From a virus: a DNA stretch of 23,454 nt. Below, in pieces: positions 1-22,479 of the stretch. A program made the position numbers and the translations under genes. The notes beneath the pieces were generated by a model. It was not told the origin of the DNA. It saw only the letters and a program-made list of their open reading frames with translations, and did not search any database. Every line of letters begins with the position of its first letter. Positions within the stretch are counted from its first letter, which is position 1. Location of the stretch: the IMG/VR virus record IMGVR_UViG_3300027796_000047, positions 1 to 23,454 of that record. One strand, written 5' to 3'.

Positions 1-19
1 ATGTGAAGAGTAGATAGTA

Positions 20-220: not shown

Positions 221-238
221 ATATAATATATTATATTA

Positions 239-266: not shown

Positions 267-297
267 AGTGGTAAATATCTTTGTGGAGGTTGTATTT

Positions 298-579: not shown

Positions 580-636
580 TTTGTTTTAGCTCTATTAAAA
601 ATAAAAAACATATAAAAGGTAATCTATTTCTTATGG

Positions 637-672
637 AATAACAGGATGCAATTAAGTTCTCCTGTTATTTTT
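637..672 (+). terminator. Rho-independent terminator
   Basis: A perfect 10-bp inverted repeat (AATAACAGGA at 637-646, TCCTGTTATT at 660-669) with a 13-base loop is followed by a T run (668-672). It lies about 60 bases after the 93-codon gene and just before the resolvase gene. Confidence 0.75.
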
Positions 673-710
673 ATTATGTCCAAGTATATTTGAAAAATAA
701 AGGTGATTTA

Positions 711-1172: not shown

Positions 1173-1224
1173 TTATAAATACTTAGTAAACATGTATTTA
1201 AATAATAAAGTGGAGGAGAGAGAA

Positions 1225-1599: not shown

Positions 1600-1865
1600 T
1601 GAATAATGAAATAGAAACACTCTTTAAGTTCTTAAATGAATCTCTAGAACTTTTTAATTCCGATTATGTAAAACTACTTAACTGTTGCAATTGCAGTGAT
1701 TTAGCAGTCACAGAGTTAGAACAAATATTATTTTATACTAAAATACAATATACATTATTTACAGTGTATAAAGAGTACGACAGCTTAGATTACAACTTAG
1801 ATAAAATGGAAGAATTCATATTATATTTAGTACAAGCAATAAAGGAGAAAAACGATGACAATTGA
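1599..1865 (+). CDS. Unknown 88-aa helical protein
   Basis: Not recognised. The ATG at 1599 shares one base with the stop codon of the sigma-like gene (TAATG), so translation is probably coupled. The protein is acidic and helical, with an unusual Cys-Cys-x-Cys cluster near residues 28-31 (LLNCCNCSD) that could bind metal, then a hydrophobic-aromatic helix region. No signal peptide or membrane span. It is probably part of the regulator operon. Confidence 0.6.
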   Translation: MNNEIETLFKFLNESLELFNSDYVKLLNCCNCSDLAVTELEQILFYTKIQYTLFTVYKEYDSLDYNLDKMEEFILYLVQAIKEKNDDN

Positions 1866-2001
1866 AATATATGCTGACAACAAAAAGCAGGAACTAACTA
1901 TAAGGGATGTAAACGGTAATATAAAGACAATAACATACAATGAATTTTTAGAGGTGTTCAAATATGGACGAAATAGTAAAAAGACTTATAAACAAAGTTA
2001 A
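1855..2001 (+). CDS. Unknown 48-aa protein
   Basis: A very small ORF, accepted because AAAGGAGA lies at ideal spacing before ATG 1855, the start overlaps the end of the previous gene (to 1865), and the end overlaps the start of the next (from 1964). The product begins MTIEIYADNK and has a short beta pattern (TIEIYAD ... ELTIRDVNGNIKTITYNEF) with a basic tail (YGRNSKKTYKQS). The chain of overlaps around it argues that it is translated. Function unknown. Confidence 0.6.
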   Translation: MTIEIYADNKKQELTIRDVNGNIKTITYNEFLEVFKYGRNSKKTYKQS

Positions 2002-2176
2002 ATATAAATGCGTAGATATAGAAGAACTTAGACAGCAAGCATACTTAATAATACTAGAGTTCCCAAATTTAACTGAAGATCAAATGTATTGGAAGCTACA
2101 ATATTATAATAATAAGCAAAATGTGTATCAAAAGAGATATAAAAACGGGATGATAGAAGATACAGGTATTATATAA
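1964..2176 (+). CDS. Unknown 70-aa protein
   Basis: ATG 1964 follows GAGGTG inside the preceding small ORF, with a 38-base overlap. The product is charged and helical: an N-terminal basic helix (VKRLINKVKYK), an acidic EELRQQAYLIILEF helix, then an aromatic-rich YWKLQYYNNKQNVYQKRY segment that could contact nucleic acid. I cannot assign a family. It is the last gene before the late-operon boundary; the 137 bases after it (2177-2313) are very AT-rich with no gene and may hold the late promoter, though I see no convincing -35/-10 pair. Confidence 0.6.
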   Translation: MDEIVKRLINKVKYKCVDIEELRQQAYLIILEFPNLTEDQMYWKLQYYNNKQNVYQKRYKNGMIEDTGII

Positions 2177-2313
2177 TGTTTAAAATATTACTCTAAAAAT
2201 AATTTAATAAACATGAAAAAAACATATGTGCAAACAGTATTATATTATGTAAGGCAATTTAAGCAATATTAAAGTAATTTAAAAAACCAAAAAGAACATA
2301 TTAAAAGTGGTTT

Positions 2314-2341
2314 AAGGAGAGCTAATTAACTCTCCTTTTTT
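2314..2341 (+). terminator. Rho-independent terminator before the packaging genes
   Basis: A perfect 8-bp stem (AAGGAGAG 2314-2321, CTCTCCTT 2330-2337), 8-base loop and a T run. It marks the boundary between the regulator cluster and the HNH/terminase module. The 3' arm plus T tract, CTCTCCTTTTTT, recurs in the hairpin at 11804. Confidence 0.8.
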
Positions 2342-2363
2342 GTTCTTAAAAAGAGTGATAAAC

Positions 2364-2669
2364 ATGAAATACAAAGATAATGTAAGAGACTTTTATCAAA
2401 CAAATGCATGGAAGAAAACAAGACTATTAGCTTTACAACGCGATTATTATTTATGCCAACACTGCTTAAAACAAAATACTATTCAATCAGCAAATGTAGT
2501 ACATCACATCATTGAAATAACAAACGAAAACTTAAATGAATATGGATTAGACTTAAACAACTTAATATCTCTATGTAGAGAATGCCATGAATCATTACAC
2601 GGCAGATTAAATAATAAAGAAGAAACATATTACTTTGATAAAAATGGTAATATAGTTCCTATTAAATAA
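2364..2669 (+). CDS. HNH endonuclease, packaging-associated
   Basis: 101 aa from ATG 2364 with AAGAGTGAT before it; a TTG at 2340 in frame would start inside the terminator T run and is rejected. Motifs: CQHC (C31/C34) and CREC (C71/C74) form the structural zinc site; VVHHI (H47-H48) carries the metal-binding/catalytic His; LNNLISLCRECHESLH supplies the N and last H of the HNH beta-beta-alpha-metal fold. In HK97-like and other cos phages an HNH protein encoded beside TerS/TerL is required with the terminase to cut the cos ends. Its position directly before the candidate cos gap and TerS fits that role and argues against a mobile homing nuclease. Confidence 0.85.
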   Translation: MKYKDNVRDFYQTNAWKKTRLLALQRDYYLCQHCLKQNTIQSANVVHHIIEITNENLNEYGLDLNNLISLCRECHESLHGRLNNKEETYYFDKNGNIVPIK

Positions 2670-2790
2670 AATCCCGAAGTGCAGCATACCCCCCATATGA
2701 AAAATCCCGCAAGTACAGCTCTACACCGCAGCCCCGTTCTTCTTAACCCAGACAGTAAATCGCAGCAAAGGGGTCAAAGAGAAGAATTAA
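2670..2790 (+). other. Candidate cos site / terminase recognition region
   Basis: This non-coding gap between HNH and TerS is unlike everything around it: 56 of 110 bases at 2670-2779 are G or C. It contains an imperfect direct repeat, AAAATCCCGAAGTGCAGC (2668-2685) and AAAATCCCGCAAGTACAGC (2701-2719), and GCAGC also recurs at 2728 and 2762. A run of six C (2689-2694) and CCCC/GGGG blocks (2732-2735, 2770-2773) are present. Cos sites of HNH-associated phages lie beside the HNH/TerS genes and are short, GC-rich and flanked by iterated terminase-binding repeats. Location and composition are seen; the cos function is inferred. Confidence 0.45.
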
Positions 2791-2803
2791 AGAGGTGAAA
2801 AGA

Positions 2804-3169
2804 ATGGACAAGAAAGAGAAAGAAAAGAAAATTAAGAAAAAGATAAAGCAATTAAGTGAATTGTTCAAAGATATTGCAAGTAATAAGAAATCATTAATAG
2901 AAGATTTAATAGAACAGGCAGCTTGGATGGCAGTAACCATTCAAGAGCTTCAAGAGAACATAAACGAAGATGGATTGACCGAAGAATTTAATCAAGGAAA
3001 ACAGCAGTTTAGACGTGAAAATACTGATACAAAAACAATACTTTCAATGCAAAAAAACTATAAAGCTACTATGGAAACATTAATAAAATTACTTCCAGAA
3101 GAACAGAAAAGTGATGAACTTGATGAATTTTTTAAAAAGAATAAGATTGGTTTTAATCAAGAGAATTAA
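2804..3169 (+). CDS. Terminase small subunit (P27-like)
   Basis: 121 aa from ATG 2804; AAAGAGGTG sits at the right distance, better than for the GTG at 2795. The N-terminus is a highly charged Lys/Glu helix (residues 1-17), then a helical core with AAWMAVTIQELQENI and the family-typical QFRRENTDTKTILSMQKNYKATMETLIKLLP segment that mediates oligomerisation. TerS rings recognise the packaging site and hand DNA to TerL. Size, composition and position between HNH and TerL support the call. The candidate recognition site lies immediately upstream, as in many cos phages. Confidence 0.75.
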   Translation: MDKKEKEKKIKKKIKQLSELFKDIASNKKSLIEDLIEQAAWMAVTIQELQENINEDGLTEEFNQGKQQFRRENTDTKTILSMQKNYKATMETLIKLLPEEQKSDELDEFFKKNKIGFNQEN

Positions 3170-3202
3170 ATAATTGAAGTCTACTCTTTTTATTTTTAAA
3201 TC

Positions 3203-3229
3203 AGGAGGTTGATGGGGTGATGTGAATTG
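3203..3229 (+). promoter_or_regulatory. Unusual translation start region of TerL
   Basis: A strong AGGAGG (3203-3208) is best spaced not for the terminase start but for GTG ATG TGA (3217-3225), a two-codon start-stop unit ending one base before the TTG start of TerL (3227). A second, weaker site, GGGGTGAT (3214-3221), lies 5 bases before the TTG. Either the second site is used directly or ribosomes re-initiate after the minigene. Both would keep TerL output low. Confidence 0.4.
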
Positions 3230-4918
3230 ACTTACATTGAAGAATATTATTCTAAAATGTGTAGCGGTGAAATAATTGTCTGTAAAAAGATAAAAAAGCA
3301 ATACGAAAAGTTAGTTAATGACATTCACACACCATATAAAATTCAACAATTACAATTCGATGGTTCATATAAAGAAATAACTTTTATATTTGATGAAAAT
3401 AAAGCTAATTTACCAATTAACTTTATAGAAACATTTTGTAAGCAATCTAAGAGTCCATATTGTGGACAACCTTTAAAACTTATGCTTTGGCAAAAAGCAA
3501 TGTTACAAGCAATTTATGGATTTGTAAATGCTGAAACGGGTTTAAGAAGATATAAAGAAATACTAGTTGAAGTTGCAAGAAAGAATGGTAAAAGTACTTT
3601 GCTAAGTGGACTTGCTGCATATCATTTAACTTTTTTTAAAGGTATACAAGTTGTTACCGCTGCCAATTCAAAATCCCAGGCTGGGATAATTTTTGAAGAA
3701 GCAAAAAATATGATAATGCAATCTCCGGCACTTGCAAAAAGAGTAACAAAAAGAAAAACAGATTTATATGTTCCTAATACATTTTCTACAATGCAGCCAT
3801 TAGCAAGTGATTCAAGTAACCTTGACGGATTAAATGCAGACTTAGTTCTTCTAGACGAAATACACGAATTTACTGATACAAAATTATACGATGTAATAAA
3901 ACAATCACAGGGAACTAAGTTAGAACCATTACTATTTATGATAACAACAAATGGTTTTGTAAGAGATAACTTTTTCGATGCAAAAATTCAATATGCTGAA
4001 GATGTATTAAATGGTGTTGCTGATAATTATGCTTTTCTTTCATTTTTATATGAATTAGATAATAAAGGTGAAAAAGGATTAGACGAAATTAAAGATTTTA
4101 GAAATTGGGTTAAACCTAATCCAGCTCTTGGAATATATCGTAGCTTCACTGAATTAAGCGAAGAAGTTCAAAAAGGAAAAGATGATATTACTTATAGACC
4201 AACTTTGTATGCTAAATATTTTAACTTACCACAGACACAACATGGCTCTTGGATGACGTTTGATGAACTTAATAACACGGAAACATTTGATATTAATGAT
4301 TTCAAAGGAAATTATTTTTTGGGTGGTTATGATCTTTCAGAAGTAAATGATTTAACCTGTGCTACGATGCTTTTTATGAAAAAAAATGATGATAAAAAGT
4401 ATATACATCAAATGTATTTCATGCCAAAGAATTTAGTTGAACAAAAAGAAATTGATGATAAAGTTCCTTATTCACAATGGATTGAACAAGGTTGGATATA
4501 TCCAAGTGGTACAAGCAAAATTAAATCTGAAGATGTATTTAATTGGTTAAAAGACACAGTTCAAAAATATAATTTGTATCCAAGACAACAAGGTTTAGAT
4601 AGATGGGGTGCAAATGAATTTTTAAGTTTAATGGAAAGTGCAAGAGTAAAAGTAGAATTAGTAATCCAAGGAACTAAAACATTTTCAAGTCCAATGAAAA
4701 ATCTTAAAGGTGATTTCATAGATAAAAAAATTATATATAACAACAATCCAGTTCTTAGATGGTGTTTAATGAACACTGTTGAAGAGCGTGATAAAAATGG
4801 AAATGTAAGACCTATAAAAGGTAAAAACAAAAATAAGCGTATAGATGGTACTTTAAGTTTATTAGATGCTTATGTAATACTTCAAAATAACTATATCGAA
4901 TTTACAAATTTATTATAA
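3227..4918 (+). CDS. Terminase large subunit (HK97-type, Terminase_1)
   Basis: 563 aa, the usual length. TTG 3227 is the only usable start after the in-frame TGA at 3218. ATPase domain: Walker A-like ARKNGKST (117-124), Walker B LVLLDE (206-211) followed by IHEF, and coupling motif TTN (240-242). Nuclease domain (RNase H-like) with acidic residues in GGYDLSEVNDLT (D369), GLDRW (D458) and GTLSLLDAY (D547). The protein cleaves concatemeric DNA and pumps it through the portal into the procapsid using ATP. It lies between TerS and portal, the standard packaging order. All key residues are present, so it is probably functional. Confidence 0.95.
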   Translation: MTYIEEYYSKMCSGEIIVCKKIKKQYEKLVNDIHTPYKIQQLQFDGSYKEITFIFDENKANLPINFIETFCKQSKSPYCGQPLKLMLWQKAMLQAIYGFVNAETGLRRYKEILVEVARKNGKSTLLSGLAAYHLTFFKGIQVVTAANSKSQAGIIFEEAKNMIMQSPALAKRVTKRKTDLYVPNTFSTMQPLASDSSNLDGLNADLVLLDEIHEFTDTKLYDVIKQSQGTKLEPLLFMITTNGFVRDNFFDAKIQYAEDVLNGVADNYAFLSFLYELDNKGEKGLDEIKDFRNWVKPNPALGIYRSFTELSEEVQKGKDDITYRPTLYAKYFNLPQTQHGSWMTFDELNNTETFDINDFKGNYFLGGYDLSEVNDLTCATMLFMKKNDDKKYIHQMYFMPKNLVEQKEIDDKVPYSQWIEQGWIYPSGTSKIKSEDVFNWLKDTVQKYNLYPRQQGLDRWGANEFLSLMESARVKVELVIQGTKTFSSPMKNLKGDFIDKKIIYNNNPVLRWCLMNTVEERDKNGNVRPIKGKNKNKRIDGTLSLLDAYVILQNNYIEFTNLL

Positions 4919-4933
4919 GAGAGGTGAAAATAA

Positions 4934-6139
4934 TTGGAATTCAGAAACATGTTTAAAAATTTATTTACACCTAAACAACAGAATGTAACACAACAATATT
5001 CAACATTTCAAATGCTAAACAATTATCTTGGAACATTTACTAACTTTTCAGGCAATGCATATAACAATGAACTTGTAAGAGCTAGTATAAATGCTATAGC
5101 AAGTCATGTTTCAAAATTAGAAGCAAAAAATAAAGGACAAAAGAATAGTAAATTAGAGTATTTATTAAATGTAAGTCCAAATCCGTATATGACAGCATAC
5201 GATATGTTTTATAAATTTGTAACACAATTATATTTAAACAATAATGCTTTCATTTTAATTCAACGTGATGATTTTGGTAATGTAACTGGTTTTTATCCAA
5301 TTAATTATTCAAATGCTGCTTTAAAACAATACAAGGGTAATTTTTATCTTGAATTTACATTTATGACAGGTAAAAAAGTTGTTGTAATGTACGAAGATAT
5401 AATTCATTTAAGAAGACATTTCAATGAAGACGATATTTATGGTTCAAATAACATTATATTAAATTCAATTCAACTTTTAGAAACAACTAACCAAGGTATC
5501 GAAAATGCTATTAAAATATCAAGCTTTTTAAGAGGTATTTTAACATCTGAACAAAGTTTAAACCCTGATGCAATTAAAAAAGTAAAAGATGAATTTGTAA
5601 ATGATTATATCACTATGAATAACAAAAGTGGTATTGCTGCCCATGATGGTAATTTTAAGTTTACACAATTAAATGCTAATCCAATGATGGTTGATGCAGA
5701 GCAGATGAAAATCATAGAAGATAAGATATTCATGTATTACAACATTAATAAAAAGATAGTGATGAATGAATTCGAAGAGAATACTTTTACTGCATTTTAC
5801 GAAGGTGTAGTTGAACCAATCTTAACAGCTCTTTCACAAGAACTTACTAGGAAGATATTTACACCAAAAGAAAGAAGTTTTAAAAATGAAATTGTATTAA
5901 CTGCTAAAAAGTTAAATTATGCAAGTTCAGATACAAAGATAAAAATGGTTAAAGAATTATCAGTGATTGGTGCTCTATCAATTAATGAAATAAGAGAACT
6001 ATTTGGATATGACGAAGTAGAAGATGGCAATGAAAGAAAAGTATCTTTAAATTATGTAAATACACAGATTGCTGACCAATATCAATTAGGAACTGATACA
6101 AATAAAACAAATACAGGTGGTGATAATGATGGAATTTAA
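4934..6139 (+). CDS. Portal protein (HK97/lambda-type)
   Basis: 401 aa. GAGGTG at 4921-4926 is 7 bases before TTG 4934, which is therefore preferred over the ATG at 4949. Family-typical segments: NELVRASINAIASHVSKL (wing start), NPYMTAYDMFYKFVTQLYL with NNNAFI, DIIHLRRH followed by YGSN, LNANPMMVDAEQMKIIEDKIFMYY (tunnel-helix region), and FYEGVVEPILTALSQEL. Twelve copies form the ring at one capsid vertex that admits DNA and docks TerL, then the connector proteins. The C-terminus is polar, Asn/Thr/Gly-rich and ends inside the start of the protease gene. Confidence 0.93.
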   Translation: MEFRNMFKNLFTPKQQNVTQQYSTFQMLNNYLGTFTNFSGNAYNNELVRASINAIASHVSKLEAKNKGQKNSKLEYLLNVSPNPYMTAYDMFYKFVTQLYLNNNAFILIQRDDFGNVTGFYPINYSNAALKQYKGNFYLEFTFMTGKKVVVMYEDIIHLRRHFNEDDIYGSNNIILNSIQLLETTNQGIENAIKISSFLRGILTSEQSLNPDAIKKVKDEFVNDYITMNNKSGIAAHDGNFKFTQLNANPMMVDAEQMKIIEDKIFMYYNINKKIVMNEFEENTFTAFYEGVVEPILTALSQELTRKIFTPKERSFKNEIVLTAKKLNYASSDTKIKMVKELSVIGALSINEIRELFGYDEVEDGNERKVSLNYVNTQIADQYQLGTDTNKTNTGGDNDGI

Positions 6140-6719
6140 AAAAGAATACAGATCAATGCCTATAGCAACACAAGAAAATGAATCTGACAAAATGATAGTT
6201 GAAGGTAAAGCAATAGTATTTAATACACCAACATTACTTTTTGAAACACCTGATTATAAATACTATGAAATTATCGATGCAAGAGCATTGGATAATTGTG
6301 ATATGTCAGATGTAGTAATGCGTTATAATCACACTGATACAATGTTTATAATGGCTAGAACAAGAAAAGGTTCATTACAACTTTTAAAAAATGAATTTGG
6401 AATAAACATAAGAGCTGAACTTTTTAATACAACACAAGCGAAAGATTTATATGAATTAATTAAAGTAGGAGCAGTTGACCAAATGTCATTTGGAATGATA
6501 GTAGAAGAAGATATAAAAGTTTGGGAAGATAATATTTGCACAAGAACAGTAACAAAAATTAAAAGGCTTGTTGATGTAAGTGCCGTGGATATGGGAGCTT
6601 ACAGAGATAATACATCAATATCTGTACGTAGCTGGTTCGAAGCGGAGGCAGAGGCTAAAAAAGCATTGGAGAATGCTGAACAACGTAAGAGATTGCTAGA
6701 CACTTATTTTAAAGGTTAA
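6129..6719 (+). CDS. Prohead protease (HK97 family, peptidase U35/S78)
   Basis: 196 aa. Portal's last codons contain GGTGGTGAT (6116-6124), which serves as ribosome site; ATG 6129 has best spacing and ATG 6126 is possible. The gene overlaps portal by about 11 bases. Catalytic His in MRYNHTD (H68) and catalytic Ser in VDQMSFGM (S120), then the conserved VDVSAVDMGAY strand, identify the herpes/HK97 assembly-protease fold. It cleaves the N-terminal scaffold of the capsid protein during maturation. The C-terminal helix is rich in Glu/Ala (FEAEAEAKKALENAEQRKR), a coiled-coil that may target it to the prohead. The usual next gene, capsid, is separated from it here by a homing endonuclease. Confidence 0.92.
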   Translation: MEFKKEYRSMPIATQENESDKMIVEGKAIVFNTPTLLFETPDYKYYEIIDARALDNCDMSDVVMRYNHTDTMFIMARTRKGSLQLLKNEFGINIRAELFNTTQAKDLYELIKVGAVDQMSFGMIVEEDIKVWEDNICTRTVTKIKRLVDVSAVDMGAYRDNTSISVRSWFEAEAEAKKALENAEQRKRLLDTYFKG

Positions 6720-6806
6720 ACATTTACTTTAATAATTAAAACATCAAAGAAAGTATTAAAAAAATTCAACAAAATATATTTAATATTCTAAAAGGAGTGA
6801 TATATT

Positions 6807-7355
6807 TTGATTGGAATTTACAGAATTACTAATAAAGTTGATGGTAAACATTATATTGGACAAGCATTAAATATAGAAGATAGATGGAAAGAACATTTAT
6901 ATGGATTAAATGGTAAATATCATCGTAATAAATATTTACAACGTGCTTGGAATAAATATGGTGAAGAAAATTTTGAATTTAAAGTACTTCAAGAATGTAC
7001 AGAAGATGAACTAAATATTTTTGAAACATTGTATATTAATATTCTTAAAACATTCGCTCCTGATGGTTATAACCTTAAAGAAGGTGGAAGTAATGGAAGA
7101 CTTTCTGAAGAAACAAAAAGAAAAATATCTGAATCTGAAAAAGGTAAAAAAGTTTCTAAAGAAACAAGAAAAAAATTATCAGAAACACTTAAAGGTAAAC
7201 CAAGTAAATCAGGGATGAAAGGTAAAAAACATACTGAAGAAACAAGAAAAAAATTATCAGAAGCTAATAAAGGTAAAAAACTTTCAGAAGAAACAAAAAA
7301 GAAATTATCAGAAGCTAATAAAGGTAATAAAAATGCAGTAAAAAAAAATATCTAA
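6807..7355 (+). CDS. GIY-YIG homing endonuclease with NUMOD3 repeats
   Basis: 182 aa, TTG start at 6807 after AAAGGAGTGAT. The catalytic domain is complete: GIYRIT (3-8), HYIGQ (Y16, G18), DRW (R26), IFETLY (E73) and GYNL (N89). From about residue 99 four tandem NUMOD3-like units of 17-19 residues follow, each of the form SEETKxKxSExxKGKK, which wrap DNA in enzymes such as I-TevI; at DNA level these make near-identical repeats within 7104-7325. It cuts a specific site in homologous DNA lacking the gene and is copied in by repair. Free-standing between protease and capsid, it interrupts the usual order without disrupting either gene. It is similar in sequence to the second GIY-YIG gene at 21709-22344. 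Confidence 0.93.
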
Positions 7356-7373
7356 ATCAAAGCAAAAAAAAAC

Positions 7374-7404
7374 AAAAAACTCCTAAAATTTTAGGAGTTT
7401 TTTT
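7374..7404 (+). terminator. Rho-independent terminator after homing endonuclease
   Basis: A perfect palindrome centred at 7388/7389 (CTCCTAAAA with TTTTAGGAG), extended by an A run (7374-7379) and a T run (7398-7404). It stops or limits transcripts just before the capsid ribosome site, so capsid messages must read through it or start inside. Confidence 0.8.
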
Positions 7405-7434
7405 AATGTAAAAATTTAGGAGGAAAACAAACAA

Positions 7435-8574
7435 ATGTTTGAAAAGAGAATGCAAGAAATTAAAACCAGAAAAATGGAAATCAAAGGTCTTTTGGAAGGT
7501 ACAGAAACAGTTGATATACCAACTTTAGAAGCTGAATTAAGAGCTTTAGATACTGAAGTAAAAGACATTGAAACCAGAAAAGAAATAGCCAAAGGCATTG
7601 AAACAGGAAAAATCGATGCAACCGAAATTACAAAACCAGTTCAGGAGGAAAAGAGAATGGATGAATTATTTAGTGTTGAAACAAAAGAGTACAGAAATGC
7701 GTACTTAAAAAATTTAATTGGCAAAGAGTTAACTGATGTTGAAAAGAGAAGTGTAGCTGCTGCTAATATAGTAATTCCAACTGATACTTACAATAGTATT
7801 TTTACAAAAGTTACTGAAATGGCACCAATGTTGAACGAAATTACATTGTTAAATGTTGCTGGAAATGTAACTTTCGCAGTTGAAGGTACAAACAATGTTG
7901 CTGGAATACACACTGAAAACAACTTAATCAATGGTGCACAAGATACTTTAGTAACTGTTAGCTTAGCTGGCTACGAAATAGTTAAGCTTGTAAGAATATC
8001 AGCTACAGTAAAAACAATGGCAATTGATGCTTTCGAAAATTGGTTAATAAGCCAGTTGTCTGAAAATGTTGCAAAAGTTATCGAAAACTATATAATCAAT
8101 GGAACTGGTGAAAGCCAACCAAAGGGTTTGGACAAAGCACAAACTTGGTCTGATGGTTCAAATGCTGTACAGTTTGCTTCAAGTGGAGCACCAACCGCTG
8201 CTGAATTAGCTGAAATGATTAGCTACTTAAAAGGCGGATACGCAAGAAATGCTAAATTCCTTGTAAACCACAAAACATTCTGGAAAGAGATAATGAAAAT
8301 CAGAGACGACAGCAAAGCTCCAATCGTTTCAAATGATAACGGCACTTACAGAATATATGGCTTCCCAGTAATATTCTCCGACTATGTTGTAGACGGTGAT
8401 GTTTTCTTAGGCGACTACAAAAAAGTTGTTGGTAACTTAGCACAAAATATAACAGTTGAAGCTTCAACTGCTTCAGCATTTGTTTACAATGCAGTTGATT
8501 ACAGAGGAGTAGCAATATTCGACTGTGATATCGCTGTTGGAGAAGCAATTGTTAAAGGTGCTTCAACTCTTTAA
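7435..8574 (+). CDS. Major capsid protein (HK97 fold)
   Basis: 379 aa, preceded by AGGAGG at ideal spacing. Residues 1 to about 73 form a charged Lys/Glu coiled coil, the delta (scaffold) domain removed by the prohead protease. From about residue 80 the HK97-fold shell protein follows, with typical segments VIPTDTYNSIFTKVTEMAPML, VTFAVEGTNN, ENYIINGTGESQPKGL (E-loop/A-domain region) and the C-terminal VDYRGVAIFDCDIAVGEAIVKG. Several hundred copies build the head. An internal in-frame ATG at 7657, with its own AGGAGG at 7643-7648, lies at the scaffold/shell boundary. It is flanked by terminator hairpins on both sides. Confidence 0.93.
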   Translation: MFEKRMQEIKTRKMEIKGLLEGTETVDIPTLEAELRALDTEVKDIETRKEIAKGIETGKIDATEITKPVQEEKRMDELFSVETKEYRNAYLKNLIGKELTDVEKRSVAAANIVIPTDTYNSIFTKVTEMAPMLNEITLLNVAGNVTFAVEGTNNVAGIHTENNLINGAQDTLVTVSLAGYEIVKLVRISATVKTMAIDAFENWLISQLSENVAKVIENYIINGTGESQPKGLDKAQTWSDGSNAVQFASSGAPTAAELAEMISYLKGGYARNAKFLVNHKTFWKEIMKIRDDSKAPIVSNDNGTYRIYGFPVIFSDYVVDGDVFLGDYKKVVGNLAQNITVEASTASAFVYNAVDYRGVAIFDCDIAVGEAIVKGASTL

Positions 8575-8582
8575 GATTAACT

Positions 8583-8613
8583 AAGAGTTAGGGAAACCTA
8601 ACTCTTTTCTTTT
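8583..8613 (+). terminator. Terminator-like hairpin after capsid gene
   Basis: A perfect 10-bp stem (AAGAGTTAGG 8583-8592, CCTAACTCTT 8597-8606) closed by a GNRA tetraloop (GAAA), followed by TTTTCTTTT. It probably attenuates transcription after the abundant capsid message; the next gene has its own AGGAGG site. Confidence 0.75.
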
Positions 8614-8637
8614 AATAAAACTAGGAGGAATTTAAAC

Positions 8638-9210
8638 ATGAATAGATATATAGGACAACTCGGAACTGATATATACGGTATTGGTGTTGATGAAGCTAGA
8701 GTTGGACATATCCACCTAACCAAAGAGCAAGCTTGTGCAGCAGACACTGACGGTTTGTTAGATGGTGTAGCTTTAACTGAAGCAGCACAAACAGTAACAG
8801 AGTTTGAAAAAGCAATGCCTTATACAAGAAATGTAACAGCAGTTGCAAGTGATGCTGTTACAACAAAAATTACTGTATACGGAACTAACATAGCTGGTAT
8901 AGCAATATCAGAGGAGTTAACTTTAAATGGTACAACTCCAGTTGTTGGAGCTAAAGCATTTAAGACAGTAACGAGTATTGTATTACCGATAGCTACTGGG
9001 ACAGAGACAGTTGATGTTGGTTTTGGTGACAAAATTGGCTTACCTTTCGTGTTTGATGCAAAACCATTAGCATTTGCAATGCAAGCTGGAACTTTAGAAT
9101 CAACAGCGCCAACATTAGCGATTGATACTGATGAAGTTGAAAAGAACACAATCGATTTGAATTCAGCTTTGGACGACACTAAAGATGTTGATATATTCTT
9201 AGTTCTTTAA
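8638..9210 (+). CDS. Putative head decoration / virion structural protein
   Basis: 190 aa with a strong AGGAGG before ATG 8638. The N-terminus (MNRYIGQLGTDIYGIGVDEA, then RVGHIHL) is followed by a Thr/Val/Ala-rich beta region (about 60-130: RNVTAVASDAVTTKITVYG, EELTLNGTTPVVGAKAFKTV) resembling an Ig-like or beta-sandwich domain, and an acidic C-terminus. There are no Cys pairs and no membrane segment. The place right after the capsid gene and before the connector genes is where siphophages encode decoration (cement) or head-fibre proteins. The role is inferred from position and composition; I see no diagnostic motif. Confidence 0.55.
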   Translation: MNRYIGQLGTDIYGIGVDEARVGHIHLTKEQACAADTDGLLDGVALTEAAQTVTEFEKAMPYTRNVTAVASDAVTTKITVYGTNIAGIAISEELTLNGTTPVVGAKAFKTVTSIVLPIATGTETVDVGFGDKIGLPFVFDAKPLAFAMQAGTLESTAPTLAIDTDEVEKNTIDLNSALDDTKDVDIFLVL

Positions 9211-9232
9211 TAAATAAGGAGGAGGTGTTGTT

Positions 9233-9514
9233 GTGGTAATACTTACTTTAAATGAAGCAAAAGCATTTTTAAGAGTTGATATTAATGATGATGACACCTT
9301 AATATCAACACTTATAACTGCTGCTGAACTTTACTTATACAATGCAACTGGTAAGACATTTGATAGTACAAATGCATTAGCTAAATTATTTTGCATGGTT
9401 CTTGTTACAGATTGGTATGACAATAGAAGTATGACAACTACTACTGACAAAACAAGAAAGATAATTGAAAGTATGCTTTTACAATTAACATATAGCACTT
9501 CAGAAGAGGTGTAA
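9233..9514 (+). CDS. Head-tail connector (gp6-like adaptor)
   Basis: 93 aa from GTG 9233, with AAGGAGGAGG before it. The sequence TLNEAKAFLRVDINDDDTLISTLITAAELYLYNATGK is the signature N-terminal helix pair of the HK97 gp6 / SPP1 gp15-type adaptor family (QLRG/phage_connect_1): LxEAKxxLRVD, then DDxLI, then AxxYLxxxTG. It forms the ring under the portal. First of four short connector genes in standard order, each with tight spacing to the next. Confidence 0.88.
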   Translation: MVILTLNEAKAFLRVDINDDDTLISTLITAAELYLYNATGKTFDSTNALAKLFCMVLVTDWYDNRSMTTTTDKTRKIIESMLLQLTYSTSEEV

Positions 9515-9516
9515 TT

Positions 9517-9828
9517 ATGGATGCAGGAAAGTTAAATAAAAAAATAACAATTCAAAAATGTGTTGAAACAAGAGATACTGATGGTTCAAATTTATTAACA
9601 TGGTCTGATGTAACAAATCTATGGTCTGAAGTTAAATACAAAGGTATGAAGCAAGATGCAGTACAAACATTAAATTACAACATAATTACAATGCATTTTA
9701 CAATTCGTAAACGTGATATTGATGTTAAAGAAAACAGAGTAAAGTACAATAATCAGTATTTCAAAATAGAAACAACTTTTGAAGAGAATAAACAATTTAT
9801 AACTCTGGTGTGTACGGTGGTGGAATAA
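9517..9828 (+). CDS. Head closure protein (Phage_H_T_join, SPP1 gp16-like)
   Basis: 103 aa. Starts 2 bases after the adaptor stop, with GAGGTG inside the adaptor's last codons. The opening GKLNKKITIQK, then TWSDVTNLWSEVKYKG and the late ENRVKYNNQYFKIETTFEENKQFITLVC strand, match the small beta-barrel head-tail joining family. It closes the head after packaging and offers the docking face for the tail. Confidence 0.85.
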   Translation: MDAGKLNKKITIQKCVETRDTDGSNLLTWSDVTNLWSEVKYKGMKQDAVQTLNYNIITMHFTIRKRDIDVKENRVKYNNQYFKIETTFEENKQFITLVCTVVE

Positions 9829-9829
9829 A

Positions 9830-10219
9830 ATGGCTGATAGAATAACAGTTAATCTTAGTCCAGGGCAAGTAAGAGCTATACAAATAAGATTAAATCAATT
9901 AGGTGATAGAGCTACCGAAGTGCTTGAAGAAAGTGTTAAAGATGAAACTGATAAACTAGAACAAAAAATAAAAGCTAGATGTCCAGTTCGTACAGGTAAA
10001 CTAAGAGATTCAATTTCCGTGCAAAAAGTAAAAGCCAATAAAAAACTTGTAAAATACAGAGTTAAACAAGATGTAAAAAAAGCAAAATATGGGAAAACAG
10101 TTGAATTTGGAACTTCAAAAAGAAGGGGTAAATTCTTCATGAAAGGTACATTTAAAAATAACAAAGACATAATGGAAGGCGAAATAAAAAGAGATATACA
10201 AAGGAGGTTAGGATTATGA
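9830..10219 (+). CDS. HK97 gp10-like neck/tail component
   Basis: 129 aa, starting 1 base after the previous stop. The diagnostic segment CPVRTGKLRDSI (residues 50-61), followed by VKYRVKQD, VEFGTSKRRGKFFMK and a C-terminal helix ending in IKRDIQRRLGL, is typical of the HK97 gp10 / minor-tail family. An early LxQLGDRATEVLEESVKDETDKL helix precedes it. The protein works at the head-tail interface or tail completion. Very basic (Lys/Arg-rich). Its stop codon overlaps the start of the next gene (ATGA). Confidence 0.85.
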   Translation: MADRITVNLSPGQVRAIQIRLNQLGDRATEVLEESVKDETDKLEQKIKARCPVRTGKLRDSISVQKVKANKKLVKYRVKQDVKKAKYGKTVEFGTSKRRGKFFMKGTFKNNKDIMEGEIKRDIQRRLGL

Positions 10220-10584
10220 ATATATGTGAAGTGCTTTATACAATATGTGCAGCCAATGATTATAAACCTTATCCTTCCCAACTTCCAAAACCATCAAATG
10301 GCGTTGTATATAATCTTATAAGTAACAAACGCAGATATAGCTTAAATGGTGATAGTAAATTTCATACGGCTGCTTTTCAAATAACTGTTTTTAATAATAG
10401 TAAGAAAGAAGCAGACAGGCAAATGGAAGAACTTATTGATATATTCTATCAATCGGTCGGAACATATGATAATATTCAAATCTTGTCAGCATTGGCAAGT
10501 GAAGAAAATGAAGACTTTGAAGAACAAACAAAATTAAATGTTAAAATATTTGATTTAACGATAACATACAAAAAGTTATCATAA
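10216..10584 (+). CDS. Tail terminator/completion protein
   Basis: 122 aa. ATG 10216 overlaps the stop of the gp10-like gene by 4 bases, so translation is coupled. Features seen: a short N-terminal helix, a central beta region (RRYSLNGDSKFHTAAFQITVFNN), a helix AEADRQMEELIDIF-like (KKEADRQMEELIDIFYQSV) and a final strand FDLTITYKKL. This alpha/beta layout, length and place directly before the tail tube gene fit the gpU/gp17-like tail terminator group, which caps the tail tube and binds the neck. The family is assigned mainly from order and pattern. Confidence 0.72.
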   Translation: MNICEVLYTICAANDYKPYPSQLPKPSNGVVYNLISNKRRYSLNGDSKFHTAAFQITVFNNSKKEADRQMEELIDIFYQSVGTYDNIQILSALASEENEDFEEQTKLNVKIFDLTITYKKLS

Positions 10585-10600
10585 ATAGGAGGAAAAAATT

Positions 10601-11002
10601 ATGGCAGGAACAGGTTCAGGTGTAACTTTTAAAATCGGAGCAACAACAATAGGTGAAATAACATCCATCGGTGGTATCGGTTCAGAAATCAATATGATTG
10701 ATGTAACTACACTTGTAAATGATGGATACAAAAGATTTATATCAGGTTTAAGAAACAATGATGATGTTGAAATTACAGGAAACTTTGATTTAACTGATGT
10801 TGGACAAGTTGCTTTAAGAACAGCACATGATAGCGGAGCAGAAGTAACTTTCGAATGGACAATACCATCAGTAGGTGCAAAAATTACAGGTGACTGTATA
10901 ATTAAGAAACAATCAGTAGAAGGATTTGAAGTTGAAGGTGTAATCCAATTCAAAGCAACATTACAAATTAACGGAAAACCAACATTAGCAGCAATAGCAT
11001 AA
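10601..11002 (+). CDS. Major tail tube protein
   Basis: 133 aa with TAGGAGGA before ATG 10601. GSGVTFKIG, IGEITSIGGIGSEINMIDVTTL, GYKRFISGLRNNDDVEITGNFD and the final beta strands VEGFEVEGVIQFKATLQINGKPTL follow the phi13/TP901-1-type tail tube pattern (ITSIxxxGxxxxxIDVTTL ... FIxGLxxxxxVxxxxNFD). Hexameric rings stack to form the tube through which DNA passes. Expressed in many copies, it is followed by a hairpin that may limit transcription of the downstream chaperone genes. Confidence 0.88.
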   Translation: MAGTGSGVTFKIGATTIGEITSIGGIGSEINMIDVTTLVNDGYKRFISGLRNNDDVEITGNFDLTDVGQVALRTAHDSGAEVTFEWTIPSVGAKITGDCIIKKQSVEGFEVEGVIQFKATLQINGKPTLAAIA

Positions 11003-11030
11003 TAACTAATATAGTATACAACTTTTTTAT

Positions 11031-11072
11031 AAAAGAAGGGAATTGCAACTATCCGCGACCCTTCTTTTTCTT
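11031..11072 (+). terminator. Terminator-like hairpin after tail tube gene
   Basis: A 10-bp stem (AAAAGAAGGG 11031-11040, CCCTTCTTTT 11059-11068) with an 18-base loop and a T-rich 3' side. The loop carries ACTATCC (11048-11054), complementary to GGATAGT downstream (11087-11093), so a pseudoknot is possible. Confidence 0.55.
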
Positions 11073-11123
11073 TTTAAAACAATAGTGGATAGTAATTATT
11101 TATTTTAAGGATGGTAAAAAATT

Positions 11124-11474
11124 ATGAAAAGATCAGTAGAAATTAACTTAGACAAAGTAAGACATTTAAGATTTGATATGTTAGCGAAAGCAAATATACA
11201 ACAGGAGTTAGGAAGACCAATTCAGCAAGTATTAGTTGACCCAAAACTAGGAGAAAAAGAACTCTTAGTAATACTTAAACATGGATTATACAGAGAAGAT
11301 AAAACATTAACCGATGAAAAAGTATCAGACATATTATTTGAATCAGAAATATCGGATGCTGAAATAATTTATAAACTTTTCGAAGCTTTAGCTGAAAGTA
11401 ATGGTGAAGGTGATAAATTCAGAGCAATTCAAGAAGCAAGAGTGGATGAAATTAAAGACGAAAAAAACCAGTAA
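11124..11474 (+). CDS. Tail assembly chaperone G
   Basis: 116 aa. An AAGGATGG site precedes ATG 11124. It is acidic and helical (RSVEINLDKVRHLRFDMLAK ... QELGRPIQQVL ... LLVILKHGLYREDKTLTDEKV), in the manner of gpG-like chaperones found between tail tube and tape measure genes. It ends KDEKNQ at TAA 11472-11474. Most ribosomes stop here; a minority slip at A AAA AAC to make the longer GT protein. G and GT coat the tape measure and recruit tail tube subunits, and are absent from the finished tail. Confidence 0.85.
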   Translation: MKRSVEINLDKVRHLRFDMLAKANIQQELGRPIQQVLVDPKLGEKELLVILKHGLYREDKTLTDEKVSDILFESEISDAEIIYKLFEALAESNGEGDKFRAIQEARVDEIKDEKNQ

Positions 11475-11815
11475 CCAGTAGTGATGATTACGATGATGTT
11501 GAAGAAGCATATATCGTTGCTACTGGATATTTAAACATAAGTGAAGAAGACTTTTGGCAAATAACCCATGGTGAACTTAATTTAAGATTCAAGGGTTATG
11601 AAAGAAGACAAAAGGATTATTACAAAGATCAATTATGGATGGCATGGCATATAGCTGCTTTATCAAGAGCTAGTAAATTGCCAAAGCTTGAAGAAATGTT
11701 AGATACAAAACCAAAGAAAACAACATTAGATGGTAAAGCAGCATTAGTACAATTAGCAGCAATGTTTGATTTTGACAGAGAACAAGTAAATAAATTTTTA
11801 AACAAGGGAGAGTAA
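11124..11815 (+). CDS. Tail assembly chaperone GT, -1 frameshift fusion
   Basis: A 230-residue product: 115 codons in the first frame up to AAC 11466-11468, then 115 codons in the -1 frame from CCA 11468 to stop TAA 11813-11815. The second frame has no start with a ribosome site and meets a stop at 11453-11455, so it can only be read by slippage. It encodes PVTSSDDYDDVEEAY, then ISEEDFWQITHGELNLRF and YYKDQLWMAWHIAALSRASKLP, the DxFWxxTxxEL / W-W-A pattern of T-type domains. This mirrors the lambda G/GT system. It lies between tail tube and tape measure, as expected. Confidence 0.9.
11462..11468 (+). promoter_or_regulatory. Slippery site for -1 frameshift (A AAA AAC)
   Basis: The heptamer AAAAAAC is in the exact X XXY YYZ phase of the G frame (codons GAA AAA AAC, stop two codons later). 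Both tRNAs can re-pair after slipping one base back, moving ribosomes into the T frame. I see no strong downstream hairpin; a CCAGTA-ACCAGTA direct repeat follows directly. Confidence 0.88.
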
Positions 11816-11833
11816 ATTTACTCTCCTTTTTTT
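11804..11833 (+). terminator. Terminator-like hairpin overlapping GT stop codon
   Basis: A perfect 20-base palindrome (GGAGAGTAAA 11807-11816, TTTACTCTCC 11817-11826) with flanking A/T pairing and a 7-base T run. The GT stop codon lies inside the stem. The 3' arm and T tract match the hairpin at 2314. It stands just before the tape measure ribosome site. Confidence 0.75.
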
Positions 11834-11857
11834 ATTTAAAAAATAGGAGGTGTGTAC

Positions 11858-14800
11858 ATGGCAAGTTTAGGGTCACTTATTGTTAATATCGGTGCGAGTA
11901 CACAACAACTTCGTCAGGGTGTAAATGATGCTTCATCCATATTAGTTAATTTTCAAAATAAGATGGGTTCCATGATTAAGAATGGTATTCTATTAAACTT
12001 TGGTTCTGACATTTATAATGGTATAAAACAAGGCACAGAACAGGCTATAAGAGCGGGTATACAATACAATAGTATGATAGAACAAAATACTGTTGCATTC
12101 AATACACTGCTTGGCAGTGCCAGTGAAGCAAACAAAATGATGACAGATATTCAGGAGATGGCAGCTAGAACACCATTCGAAACCGCTGGTTTAACGAACA
12201 ACGTTAAATTAATGACTGCTTATGGATTTGAAGCACAAAAAACTCTTGGAATGTTAACAACAATGGGTGATGCCGCCGCTGCTTTGGGAGCAGGCAATGA
12301 AGGTATTGAAAGAATAACTAGAGCATTGGGACAAACGAGAGCAAAGGGAAAAGTACAAGCCCAAGAAATGAATCAACTTGCAGAGCTGGGTATACCAGCT
12401 TGGGAAATGCTGGCTGAAGCGGCGGGAAAATCAATTGCTTACATGATGAAACAATCCGAAAACGGTGCAATAAAAGCAGATTGGGCAATTAAAGCTATTT
12501 TAGATGGTATGAATGCAAGATATGCTGGAAGTATGGAAGCACAATCAAAAACTTACTTCGGTATGTTAAGTACTGCAAAAGATTATGCAAAACAATTATC
12601 AGGAACATTAACTGCACCTTTATTTGATTTTATGAAGGTTGATATATTTCAAACATTGATTGATAAGTTTACAGCATTCAAAAGTGTAGCAGAACAGAGT
12701 GGTTTAAAAGAAGCATTTAAAACTATTTTCCCTGAAGATATAGTAGAAAATACTTCATCAATTGTTGATAGTTTAAAAGGAATTGTTGGCGGTGTAGTTG
12801 ATTATGTTGCTTCAAAAAAAGATACAATCATAGGTGTTGTAACTAATGTAACTGGTAAAATAGCTGAACTTTTAGATTATGTTAATAATGATGGTGAAAA
12901 GATAGTACCTGTCGCTGGTGGAATAGCAGCAGCATTTATAGCAATGCGTGGTGTGCCAGCTATAATTGCAACAGTAACAACAGCGGTTGGTGGACTTAGA
13001 TTAGCAATAACTGCATTATCAGCACATCCAGCAATAGCATTAACAACGGCACTTGCAGCATTAGTAGTTGGATATATTGCATATAAAAACGCTTCAGACG
13101 ATTTTAAAACCAAAACATTAGAGCAATTAGAAGCTATGCGTAATGAAACAGAAGCAACAGATAAATTAATTGCAAGATACGAATGGTTAAAAGAACAAAC
13201 AAAATTAACAACTGATGAAAAAACAGAGTTGCATGATATTGAAGTTAAATTAGCGGAATTATACCCATCATCCGTAGATGGAATTGATAAACAAAATAAA
13301 GCTTATACTGATCAAATTGATCTTGTAAAAGAATTAAATGCGGAAAAGAAAAGACAGATACAAAATGATTTAGAATTTAGTGTAGCTAAAAATGAAAAGA
13401 ACATTCAAAAGTGGCAAGACAAACGAAATAAGATTCCAGACGAGATAAAAAAAGCACAAGAAAAACAACAAATAGCTAAACAACAAATTGAAGACATGAA
13501 TAGCGGCAAACTATGGGAGGGTTTCGCTGGCGAAAGAAGATATAATGCTGTGGGAGTTTGGGAAGATGCATCAAAACAGATAAAAAAACTGCAAGAAGAA
13601 GAACAAAAATTAACTGGTCAAATTGAAGAGTATTGGGAACAACTAGAAAAGTTAGATGGTTTTGATGTAAAAATTGATTGGGATAAAGCATATGCTCCAG
13701 ATTCAGCTAAAGCTGCAATTAAAAAATTAGCAGCCGATGAAGCAAAAACAAGAAAAGAAGCACAGTTAAAAGAAGGTGCAAAATATAAATCTAATTCATC
13801 GCCTTTATTGAATTCAACTTATCTTACTGAAATGGAAAAATACAATAAATCAGTTACAAAACAACAGAAAAAAATAGAAACTGGTGCAAGCGAAACAATA
13901 AAAAATATAGCACATAACATTAGTAACGATGACACTATAAGTATTGCAACAAGAAACATGGTTGAATCATTAACACTTCCATTTTGGGATATTCCAGAAC
14001 ATTTTAGAACAGCTACAGGAGTTATGCCAGGGAATGCCCAATCAACTGTTGATAAAATAAATCAAGCTTTCAAAAATATAACTCTTAAAGACATGAATGG
14101 CGACATTAACGAATGGGTTAAACAATTCGGAAGTATAAATGAAAAAGTTGCTAATCTAATGAAACCAGCATTGGATGATTTGAAATCAGGTGTAAATGAT
14201 TACTTAGGTTCAATCAGTAAATTAAAAGATGCATATACATTAGCTAAATCAATCGGTGATGAAGCAGGAATGCGTGCAGCTAAACAAGCGGCTTTGGAAA
14301 CAAGAATGGCACAAGCTGATAATATGTTAAAAGCAATTGAAGTTGGTGTTAAAGCAGGGACTTTACAAAAAGGTACACCAATTTTAAGAGACAGTGAAAT
14401 ACAACAAATAAAAGAAATAAGTAAATTATATACTGAAGCAAGTGCCAATGGTGCAACTGCTGAACAACTTGATTATTTCAAACAAGCAGCACAGACAGCT
14501 AGAGCAATACTTGGATATACAGCATCAAATACTGATGGTACAGGATTTGTTGACCTTACAAAAGGAAATATTACTGCCCAACCAGTAATAACATCTACAC
14601 CAACAGTTACCCAACCAGTGAATAATCCAACTGTCCCAACCAATAATACAAAACCAGTGAATAATCCAACTGTCCCAACCAATAATCCATTTAACCCAAA
14701 TATTAATTTAAACAATAATATACAACAGATTACAAAACTAAATGAAGATATTGCAAAAGCGCAAAAAGATTGGGCTTATTATAAATCAATTAACGATTCA

Positions 14801-20993: not shown

Positions 20994-21725
20994 TTAATAG
21001 TTATATATTTTAGTAATAAGAGTGTTTAAGTATAGATGTTTTGGAATTTCGTTAAGCCAATCATCAATATTACTTAAATTACATGTTTTTAATATCATCT
21101 TCCAATCGTAACATTCTTTCTCTAAAATCCCCAAAACATATACTTTTTTAATTAAGTTAGGCAAGTATTGTAGAATATTATTCTTATTGTTATTAATAAA
21201 ATCTAACCATAAATCAGGACTTGAAGTACATGTAGAAAGTATCTTTTCATATCCTTGAACAGCTATTTTAAATTTATCCCAAAGTTTATTGTCAACAAAC
21301 ATTACAGGACAAGATTTTTTTGATGCATCATAATGGCGAACTACATGATTAATATCAATGTTTAACTCTTTCATTAAATATCTTACAAGTTCAATTGTAT
21401 TAAATAATGTTTTATTAAAGTTATCATCAATATTAACACACATTTCAATAGAGATACTATTAGCATTAGTAATTCCATACGCACCCCTACCGTCTCCTAC
21501 AGCCCATGTATAATTTTTATTGTAATCATTTATTTGTAAAATGTTTGAATCATCAACAAAGAAGTCAGCACTAGAGTTACGATTTCCACCATCAAAATAT
21601 TTGTAATGCATCAAACCATTTGCTCCTTTAGAATAGTTACCTGTATAATGCAAACATATATACTTTATTGGTTCAGTTCTTTTTGAAATATTAAATTGTA
21701 TCTGTTTCTTAATAATTTGTAACAT
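20994..21725 (-). CDS. Endolysin: N-acetylmuramoyl-L-alanine amidase (Amidase_2)
   Basis: 243 aa. The start is taken at minus-strand ATG 21725 because AGGAAAGGTGA lies ahead of it; an upstream ATG at 21764 has no such support. The T7-lysozyme/PGRP-like amidase domain covers about 1-150: zinc ligands H26 (ICLHYTGN), H131 (VVRHYDAS) and C139 (SCPV), with E94 (SISIEMC). It cuts the bond between muramic acid and the peptide stem. Residues 155-243 are a helical, Asn/Leu/Trp-rich domain (SPDLWLDFI ... LGILEKECYDWKMIL ... DDWLNEIPKHL), presumably wall-binding. No signal peptide, so it needs the holin. Its first 17 bases and ribosome site lie inside the GIY-YIG gene upstream. It is transcribed opposite to the other late genes. 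Confidence 0.92.
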   Translation of the reverse strand: MLQIIKKQIQFNISKRTEPIKYICLHYTGNYSKGANGLMHYKYFDGGNRNSSADFFVDDSNILQINDYNKNYTWAVGDGRGAYGITNANSISIEMCVNIDDNFNKTLFNTIELVRYLMKELNIDINHVVRHYDASKKSCPVMFVDNKLWDKFKIAVQGYEKILSTCTSSPDLWLDFINNNKNNILQYLPNLIKKVYVLGILEKECYDWKMILKTCNLSNIDDWLNEIPKHLYLNTLITKIYNY

Positions 21726-22344
21726 TATATTCACCTTTCCTAATTTTATAATATATTTGTCCACTGATTTTGTACTTTTCTATAAATTCAGAACATTTCA
21801 TTCCATTATTAACATCATTAATCATTTCTAATGTCATTTTATTAACTGGATTGTTTTTTCCAAATTTCCCATGCATTCCATTATTAGAACCAGAATTGGC
21901 TTGTCCTATTTTTATTTTATGTTCTTCAGATAATGGTTTGCCTTTACCGATATTTGCTTTACCCATTTTTATTTTCGTTTCTTCAGAATAAACATCTGTT
22001 TTTCCTTTGTTCCATGGAATATTTCCCTTAGAAACACCATCACAACCAGCAGTTAAGTTATAACCATATTCGTTATTATTTGATTCATAGTAAGTTATCC
22101 AATATTTTTCTTTATCATTAAGTAATTTTGAATCTTCTACTTCTTCTAAAACATCAAATGTAAAATTATCTTCACCATATTTATTCCAAGAAGTCTGTAA
22201 ATAAGAATTGTAATGTTTTCCTTTTCTTAAATCATTAATATGTGAATTCCATCTTGTAGTAAATGTTGTATTTTTACCTTTACCTACTTGTCCAACATAA
22301 CATTTATTATTAACTTCATTAGTGATAATATAAATTCCAATCAT
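21709..22344 (-). CDS. GIY-YIG homing endonuclease inserted in the lysin locus
   Basis: 211 aa; AGGTGAT precedes minus-strand ATG 22344. Catalytic residues are complete: GIYIIT (3-8), CYVGQ (Y16, G18), TTRW (R31), DKEKYW (E79), GYNL (N96). An extra GKGKNTTFT loop lies before R31 relative to the first GIY-YIG protein. NUMOD3-like units follow (SEETKIKMGKANIGKGK, SEEHKIKIGQANSG), then a helix-turn-helix-like end (MINDVNNGMKCSEFIEKYKI). Its start codon overlaps the stop of a truncated amidase reading frame (ATGA), and its last 17 bases overlap the start of the intact amidase, so the three are one translational chain. Likely a mobile gene that targets amidase genes at the HYTG codons. Confidence 0.93.
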   Translation of the reverse strand: MIGIYIITNEVNNKCYVGQVGKGKNTTFTTRWNSHINDLRKGKHYNSYLQTSWNKYGEDNFTFDVLEEVEDSKLLNDKEKYWITYYESNNNEYGYNLTAGCDGVSKGNIPWNKGKTDVYSEETKIKMGKANIGKGKPLSEEHKIKIGQANSGSNNGMHGKFGKNNPVNKMTLEMINDVNNGMKCSEFIEKYKISGQIYYKIRKGEYNVTNY

Positions 22345-22442
22345 ACTATCACCTGTCCAGTATAGTGTACTACAATATAATTAATTGGTTGGGTACGTTT
22401 TGAAATGTTATATTTGATTTGATACTTTTGAATGTTTAACAT
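22341..22442 (-). pseudogene. Relic of a second amidase N-terminus (33 codons)
   Basis: Minus-strand ATG 22442 with AAGAGG before it opens a 33-codon frame starting MLNIQKYQIKYNISKRT and reaching VVHYTG, then four foreign codons and TGA. Aligned with the intact amidase N-terminus, 20 of 29 residues match, including the zinc ligand His and HYTG; the DNA is clearly divergent. The frame stops right after HYTG and its TGA overlaps the ATG of the endonuclease. It is therefore the 5' stub of an interrupted amidase gene, not a recent duplication of the present one. It could still be translated as a leader peptide that delivers ribosomes to the endonuclease gene. Confidence 0.85.
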
Positions 22443-22448
22443 AATAAA

Positions 22449-22479
22449 ACCTCTTTTATGTTTTTAATACATAAGAGGT
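22449..22479 (-). promoter_or_regulatory. Hairpin that can hide the lysin-relic ribosome site
   Basis: ACCTCTT and AAGAGGT (22449-22455 and 22473-22479) pair, with an inner ATGT/ACAT stem across a two-base bulge. On the minus strand the 3' arm contains the AAGAGGT ribosome site of the relic frame, followed by TTTTATT. It could act as a weak terminator or as a site-sequestering leader. Confidence 0.5.

What the first reader, a model, noticed from the sequence alone, without database searches (positions are those of the whole stretch)
21709..22442. Homing endonuclease invasion of the lysin gene leaving a divergent amidase stub
On the minus strand the order is: 33-codon amidase N-terminus ending at HYTG, GIY-YIG endonuclease, complete amidase with its own N-terminus. 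The stub and the intact N-terminus match at 20 of 29 residues but differ much at DNA level, so this is not a fresh tandem duplication. The simplest reading is that the endonuclease cut an amidase gene at the conserved zinc-ligand codons and arrived together with a different, presumably cleavage-resistant amidase. That would be a mobile element that carries a replacement copy of the essential gene it destroys.
Basis: partly seen in the sequence, partly recalled or inferred. Interest (0 to 1): 0.78.

Follow-up and report, generated by a model that had tools for sequence, protein, structure and literature searches.

The report
Homing endonuclease carrying replacement gene start
In this phage a selfish DNA-cutting gene sits inside the start of the cell-wall-digesting lysin gene but is followed by a second, different start that makes the lysin whole again; two other phages show the same trick in other genes, so it looks like a way for such elements to invade an essential gene without killing it.

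Summary
On the minus strand lie a 33-codon amidase stub (22442-22341), a GIY-YIG/NUMOD3 endonuclease (22344-21709) and a complete Amidase_2 gene (21725-20994), packed with 4- and 17-nt overlaps and with no intron. Stub and intact N-terminus share 20/29 residues; pS 0.67 against pN 0.21 fits two once-functional alleles, not a fresh duplication.

A scan of 82 related endonuclease loci found the same layout in an unrelated GH19 lysin, cut just before the catalytic HETG. There, 68 of 69 uninterrupted relatives match the stub better than the intact N-terminus. The exception, an endonuclease-free phage, shares a 186-bp block (93.5%) running from the endonuclease's last codons through the replacement N-terminus; similarity falls to 70% exactly at HETG. 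A third case is a peptidyl-tRNA hydrolase with a different nuclease type.

So the mobile unit is best read as endonuclease plus replacement gene start ('patch'), not a whole second lysin. Fungal mitochondrial elements that swap gene ends are the precedent; I found no phage report in the papers searched. Verdict: new phage variant of a known kind.

The parts
22356..22442 (-). Amidase stub, homologous part (29 codons, ends at HYTG; remnant of the invaded allele)
   Evidence: 20/29 aa and 60/87 nt identical to 21639-21725; pS 0.67, pN 0.21
22341..22442 (-). Whole stub ORF (33 codons; last 4 codons come from the endonuclease leader; stop overlaps endonuclease start as ATGA)
22449..22479 (-). Hairpin upstream of the stub that pairs its Shine-Dalgarno (AAAGAGGT)
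   Evidence: fold -9.5 kcal/mol, z -2.2; function inferred only
21709..22344 (-). Free-standing GIY-YIG homing endonuclease with NUMOD3, own SD AGGTGA at 22354-22349
   Evidence: Pfam PF01541 1.1e-8, PF07460 3e-4; similar to I-TevI catalytic domain 1mk0, E=2.1e-12
21639..21725 (-). Replacement N-terminus ('patch'), codons 1-29 of the intact amidase; its start overlaps the endonuclease end, SD AGGAAAGG at 21741-21734 lies inside the endonuclease gene
   Evidence: sequence; patch status inferred from the parallel case L070/L242
20994..21725 (-). Intact Amidase_2 lysin, 243 aa
   Evidence: Pfam 4.9e-18; similar to XlyA amidase 3hmb, E=7.1e-20

Best explanation
A free-standing GIY-YIG homing endonuclease invaded the phage's lysin gene at the conserved zinc-ligand codons (HYTG) as a unit made of the endonuclease gene plus a divergent replacement N-terminus. 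The resident gene's first 29 codons were left behind as a stub; the replacement start joins the downstream coding part, so a complete amidase is still made. Proposed working (inferred): in a mixed infection the enzyme cuts uninterrupted lysin alleles at these codons; repair copies endonuclease plus patch using the upstream/stub side and the lysin body as homology arms. The patch must differ from the stub, otherwise the restored gene would be cut again and the two copies would recombine and delete the element. Stub, endonuclease and amidase are chained by overlapping start/stop codons with their own ribosome sites, so lysin expression is kept. Shown: the anatomy, the allele-like divergence, the recurrence, and in the GH19 parallel the foreign patch with its edge at the catalytic codons. 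Inferred: cleavage, cut position, resistance and mobility.
For: Anatomy and domains. Stub/intact pN well below pS, so both were functional genes. No second amidase and no other amidase fragment in this record or the sister contig. Parallel in a GH19 lysin: stub, GIY-YIG/NUMOD3, full gene; 68 of 69 uninterrupted relatives match the stub better than the intact N-terminus, mean gap 10.6 residues. Endonuclease-free phage L242 shares 174/186 nt from the last endonuclease codons to HETG, then 325/466 (Fisher p=2.6e-12); pS is 0.15 in the patch and 0.85 just after it. Flanking genes are only 60-62% alike at protein level. Third case in a PTH2 gene with a zinc-finger, nuclease-like gene.
Against: For the window itself no relative closer than about 59% was found, so the right-hand edge of the replaced part cannot be seen and replacement of the whole amidase is not excluded. 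The preference of uninterrupted amidases for the stub is slight (31 of 42, related sequences). Only one contig covers the site. No cleavage data. The parallel phages are unrelated, so the transfer of the mechanism rests on shared architecture.
Confidence: 0.72

Rival explanations
1. The endonuclease moved together with a whole different amidase gene, inserted into or in place of the old gene; the old gene's 3' part was lost.
For: The intact amidase is complete and its start is fused to the endonuclease end; nothing of the old 3' part remains.
Against: In the GH19 parallel only the N-terminus is foreign; the exchange edge sits at the catalytic codons. Whole-gene replacement also needs a deletion of the old 3' part right up to the convergent holin.
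Confidence: 0.17
2. Tandem duplication of the amidase start followed by insertion of a free-standing endonuclease between the copies; no homing into the lysin and no foreign patch.
For: The two copies are each other's closest relatives among the sequences found (20/29; best other match 18/28 or 16/29).
Against: Divergence near synonymous saturation with low pN; junction exactly at active-site codons in independent cases; in the GH19 parallel, relatives side with the stub and the patch is shared with another phage.
Confidence: 0.07
3. Group I intron (or intein) in the lysin gene, with the stub as exon 1.
For: Introns in phage lysin genes are known (established knowledge).
Against: No Rfam group I or II match over the window or in a sensitive scan of the locus; the endonuclease fills the whole gap; the downstream part repeats the N-terminus, so splicing would give a duplicated, not a restored, protein.
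Confidence: 0.02
4. Metagenome assembly artefact joining two alleles.
For: Only one contig covers the site.
Against: Overlapping genes with ribosome sites fit exactly; the same layout occurs in L070/L071 (two contigs) and L025/L027/L028/L029 (four contigs).
Confidence: 0.02

Closest known systems
Fungal mitochondrial mobile ORF elements that replace gene ends (Allomyces macrogynus atp6; Glomus atp6, atp9, cox2, nad3; PMC3630166)
   Same: Endonuclease gene inserted in a conserved gene together with a divergent copy of that gene's end; a hybrid gene results; the displaced native end stays beside it and resembles relatives better.
   Different: There the C-terminus is replaced in mitochondria, mostly by LAGLIDADG enzymes (GIY-YIG in atp9); here the N-terminus in phage genes, with the replaced piece giving a fresh translation start.
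[quoted passage not shown]
   Same: Duplicated N-terminus travels with the element; loss leaves a swapped gene fragment, as L242 may show.
   Different: Described as introns there; no intron here.
T4 seg/mob free-standing homing endonucleases (PMC2988022)
   Same: GIY-YIG enzyme, free-standing, targets a neighbouring conserved gene.
   Different: T4 genes lie between genes; a stub plus replacement gene start is not described there.
Phage genes split by an endonuclease (Aeromonas phage Aeh1 nrdA/mobE; own knowledge)
   Same: Endonuclease inside an essential gene whose function is kept.
   Different: There both pieces work together; here the stub is displaced and a complete copy follows.

Membership tests
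Free-standing GIY-YIG homing endonuclease | GIY-YIG catalytic domain plus DNA-binding modules | tested here: met
   PF01541 1.1e-8, NUMOD3 3e-4; I-TevI domain match 2.1e-12
Free-standing GIY-YIG homing endonuclease | Site-specific cleavage and super-Mendelian transfer | not testable with these tools
   needs protein and mixed infections
Group I intron with endonuclease | Conserved ribozyme core around the ORF | tested here: not met
   no Rfam intron match; no non-coding space
Gene-end-replacing homing element (Allomyces/Glomus type) | Endonuclease inside a conserved gene with a divergent homologous gene end on its far side | tested here: met
   window; GH19; PTH2
Gene-end-replacing homing element (Allomyces/Glomus type) | Displaced end resembles relatives better than the new end | tested here: inconclusive
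   window: 31 of 42 by score, slight; met in the GH19 parallel, 68 of 69
Gene-end-replacing homing element (Allomyces/Glomus type) | Replacement end moved between genomes with an edge at the insertion site | tested here: inconclusive
   window: no close relative; shown for L070/L242
Gene-end-replacing homing element (Allomyces/Glomus type) | Hybrid gene is transcribed and functional | not testable with these tools
   intact domain and ribosome sites only
Split gene working in pieces (mobE-nrdA type) | Both gene pieces needed for function | tested here: not met
   downstream amidase is complete

The most novel reading that the evidence does not exclude
Phages carry a general class of homing element, an endonuclease plus a replacement gene start, that enters essential genes at active-site codons in several gene families and nuclease families, spreads divergent N-termini between phages, and leaves a patched, presumably immune gene when the endonuclease is lost.
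Probability: 0.6. Interest if true: 0.82.

Novelty: new variant of a known kind. Interest (0 to 1): 0.72.

Why it matters
Free-standing phage endonucleases are described as sitting between genes or inside introns, because breaking an essential gene would be fatal. An element that brings its own repair of the broken gene removes that limit: it can use the most conserved, hence most widespread, target sites. It would also explain abrupt N-terminal swaps and mosaic edges in phage lysins, and the GH19 pair L070/L242 gives a directly testable donor, a scar and a set of uninterrupted targets.

Tried and rejected
Pattern searches with the window amidase and holin in viral and genome collections found no close relatives, so the right-hand edge could not be tested in the window itself. 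Mixed alignment A1 was too divergent to scan. A scan for GIY-YIG starts just after TATACNGG codons gave no second HYTG insertion. GIY-YIG and NUMOD3 family searches in 391 Clostridia genomes gave no further case; most top GIY-YIG hits are small ORFs. Families of the best amidase hits gave nothing above 59%. A microhomology (ACAGGT) between the endonuclease leader and the intact TG codons was considered and dropped: the AGGT part is explained by the ribosome site. Intron, intein, fresh duplication and conserved-leader readings were rejected as described.

Full report
What is there. On the minus strand the window holds a 33-codon stub (22442-22341), a 211-aa GIY-YIG endonuclease with a NUMOD3 motif (22344-21709) and a 243-aa Amidase_2 lysin (21725-20994). 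The stub's stop overlaps the endonuclease start (ATGA), and the endonuclease's last codons contain the amidase's ribosome site and start; each gene has its own Shine-Dalgarno sequence. Nothing is left over for an intron, and no intron family matches. The amidase resembles XlyA (3hmb) and the endonuclease resembles the catalytic domain of I-TevI (1mk0), so both look intact.

Is it more than chance. Stub and intact start share 20 of 29 residues and 60 of 87 bases; the homology ends right after HYTG. Synonymous sites differ at 0.67 and non-synonymous sites at 0.21: the two diverged as working genes, so this is not a fresh tandem copy. They are nearer to each other than to any other amidase found, so they look like two alleles of one lysin lineage. 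I compared the sequence on both sides of 82 related GIY-YIG genes: the window scores 109, two copies of one other locus score 128, and all others 37 or less.

The parallel case. L070/L071 (viral contigs, 2.2 kb around the site almost identical) have a 46-codon stub of a GH19 lysin, a GIY-YIG/NUMOD3 endonuclease and a complete GH19 lysin. The stub ends just before the catalytic HETG codons. The uninterrupted lysin of Flavobacterium phage immuto matches the stub at 33 of 45 residues but the intact N-terminus at only 26 of 47. Among 80 related lysin loci only the L070 locus itself has the endonuclease or a second start. 68 of 69 testable uninterrupted lysins are closer to the stub, by 10.6 residues on average, although they were collected by similarity to the intact gene; the sequences are related, so this is not 69 independent votes. 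Eleven more were left out by my motif filter.

The scar. The single exception, L242, lies in the same gene neighbourhood and has no endonuclease and no stub. From the last codons of the L070 endonuclease gene to the HETG codons the two are 174/186 identical (93.5%); from there to the end of the gene 325/466 (70%), p=2.6e-12. Synonymous difference is 0.15 in the shared piece and 0.85 just after it, so selection on the protein cannot explain the step. Neighbouring genes are 60-62% identical at protein level. A replacement gene start has therefore moved between these phages as a block whose right edge is the point where the stub breaks off. L242 may have lost the endonuclease or may represent the donor type; the data do not decide.

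A third case. A scan of all fetched loci for any ORF with homologous gene starts on both sides found four contigs (L025, L027, L028, L029) with a start of a PTH2 peptidyl-tRNA hydrolase, a 370-aa DUF723/CapR zinc-finger gene (probably an endonuclease), and the complete PTH2 gene (E=3.8e-10). The break lies at the GAQ motif, which by family knowledge is next to the active site. A different gene and a different nuclease type, with the same layout.

Back to the window. Uninterrupted amidases at up to 59% identity occur in Clostridia genomes; none of the loci tested has a matching endonuclease. Their starts fit the stub slightly better than the intact copy, 31 of 42 by alignment score. That agrees with the model but is weak. 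No relative is close enough to show where the replaced part ends, so whether the window's amidase was replaced only at its start (as in L070) or entirely stays open.

Mechanism. Best reading: the mobile unit is the endonuclease gene plus a divergent gene start. Entry breaks the essential gene at conserved codons; the carried start makes it whole. Divergence of the carried start from the stub is expected, because it protects the patched gene from being cut and keeps the two copies from recombining. Cleavage, its position and immunity are inferred, not shown.

Known or new. Fungal mitochondria have such elements: endonuclease ORFs with a foreign C-terminus in Allomyces and Glomus (PMC3630166) and introns with N-terminal duplications, including a loss model, in Tremella (PMC7315562). 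The T4 review describes free-standing phage endonucleases in intergenic regions (PMC2988022), and a survey of phage nuclease genes at exchange boundaries showed no such case in the passages searched (PMC10448857). I found no phage report in the held papers; subscription literature was not searched. I call it a new variant of a known kind.

Noticed in passing
window 6807-7355 (+): A second free-standing GIY-YIG/NUMOD3 gene just upstream of the presumed capsid gene, with no duplicated gene start seen; it is 77% identical in DNA to a third one in the sister contig (L003:3002-3537), which carries a further GIY-YIG gene (L003:1276-1617).
   Followed up: partly
L101 / IMGVR_UViG_3300004154_000366: Sister contig identical (99.99%) to window 1-13012 that extends the phage about 10.6 kb upstream and stops before the lysis region.
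   Followed up: yes
L054:2149-2980: GIY-YIG gene flanked by two similar C-terminal ends of a small gene (APSKAMLAQEKMIKAKGK and KPNSAMLKQEKKIKAKGK): possibly the mirror-image, C-terminal version in a phage.
   Followed up: partly
L373:1158-2869: Both the PTH2 stub and the full PTH2 gene have an in-frame TAG soon after ATG, suggesting that this phage reads TAG as an amino acid (code 15).
   Followed up: partly
L070:2750 and 2978; L242:2885: Motif GATATTTATTRA (promoter-like) stands upstream of the stub and again upstream of the endonuclease, so the inserted unit may bring its own promoter.
   Followed up: partly
window 22449-22479 (-): Hairpin upstream of the stub pairs its Shine-Dalgarno sequence (-9.5 kcal/mol, z -2.2); may control expression of the stub-endonuclease-amidase chain.
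   Followed up: partly
L190 and L213 (G410 contig C23): Two complete, similar amidase genes about 3 kb apart in one genome of the clostridial sample.
   Followed up: no
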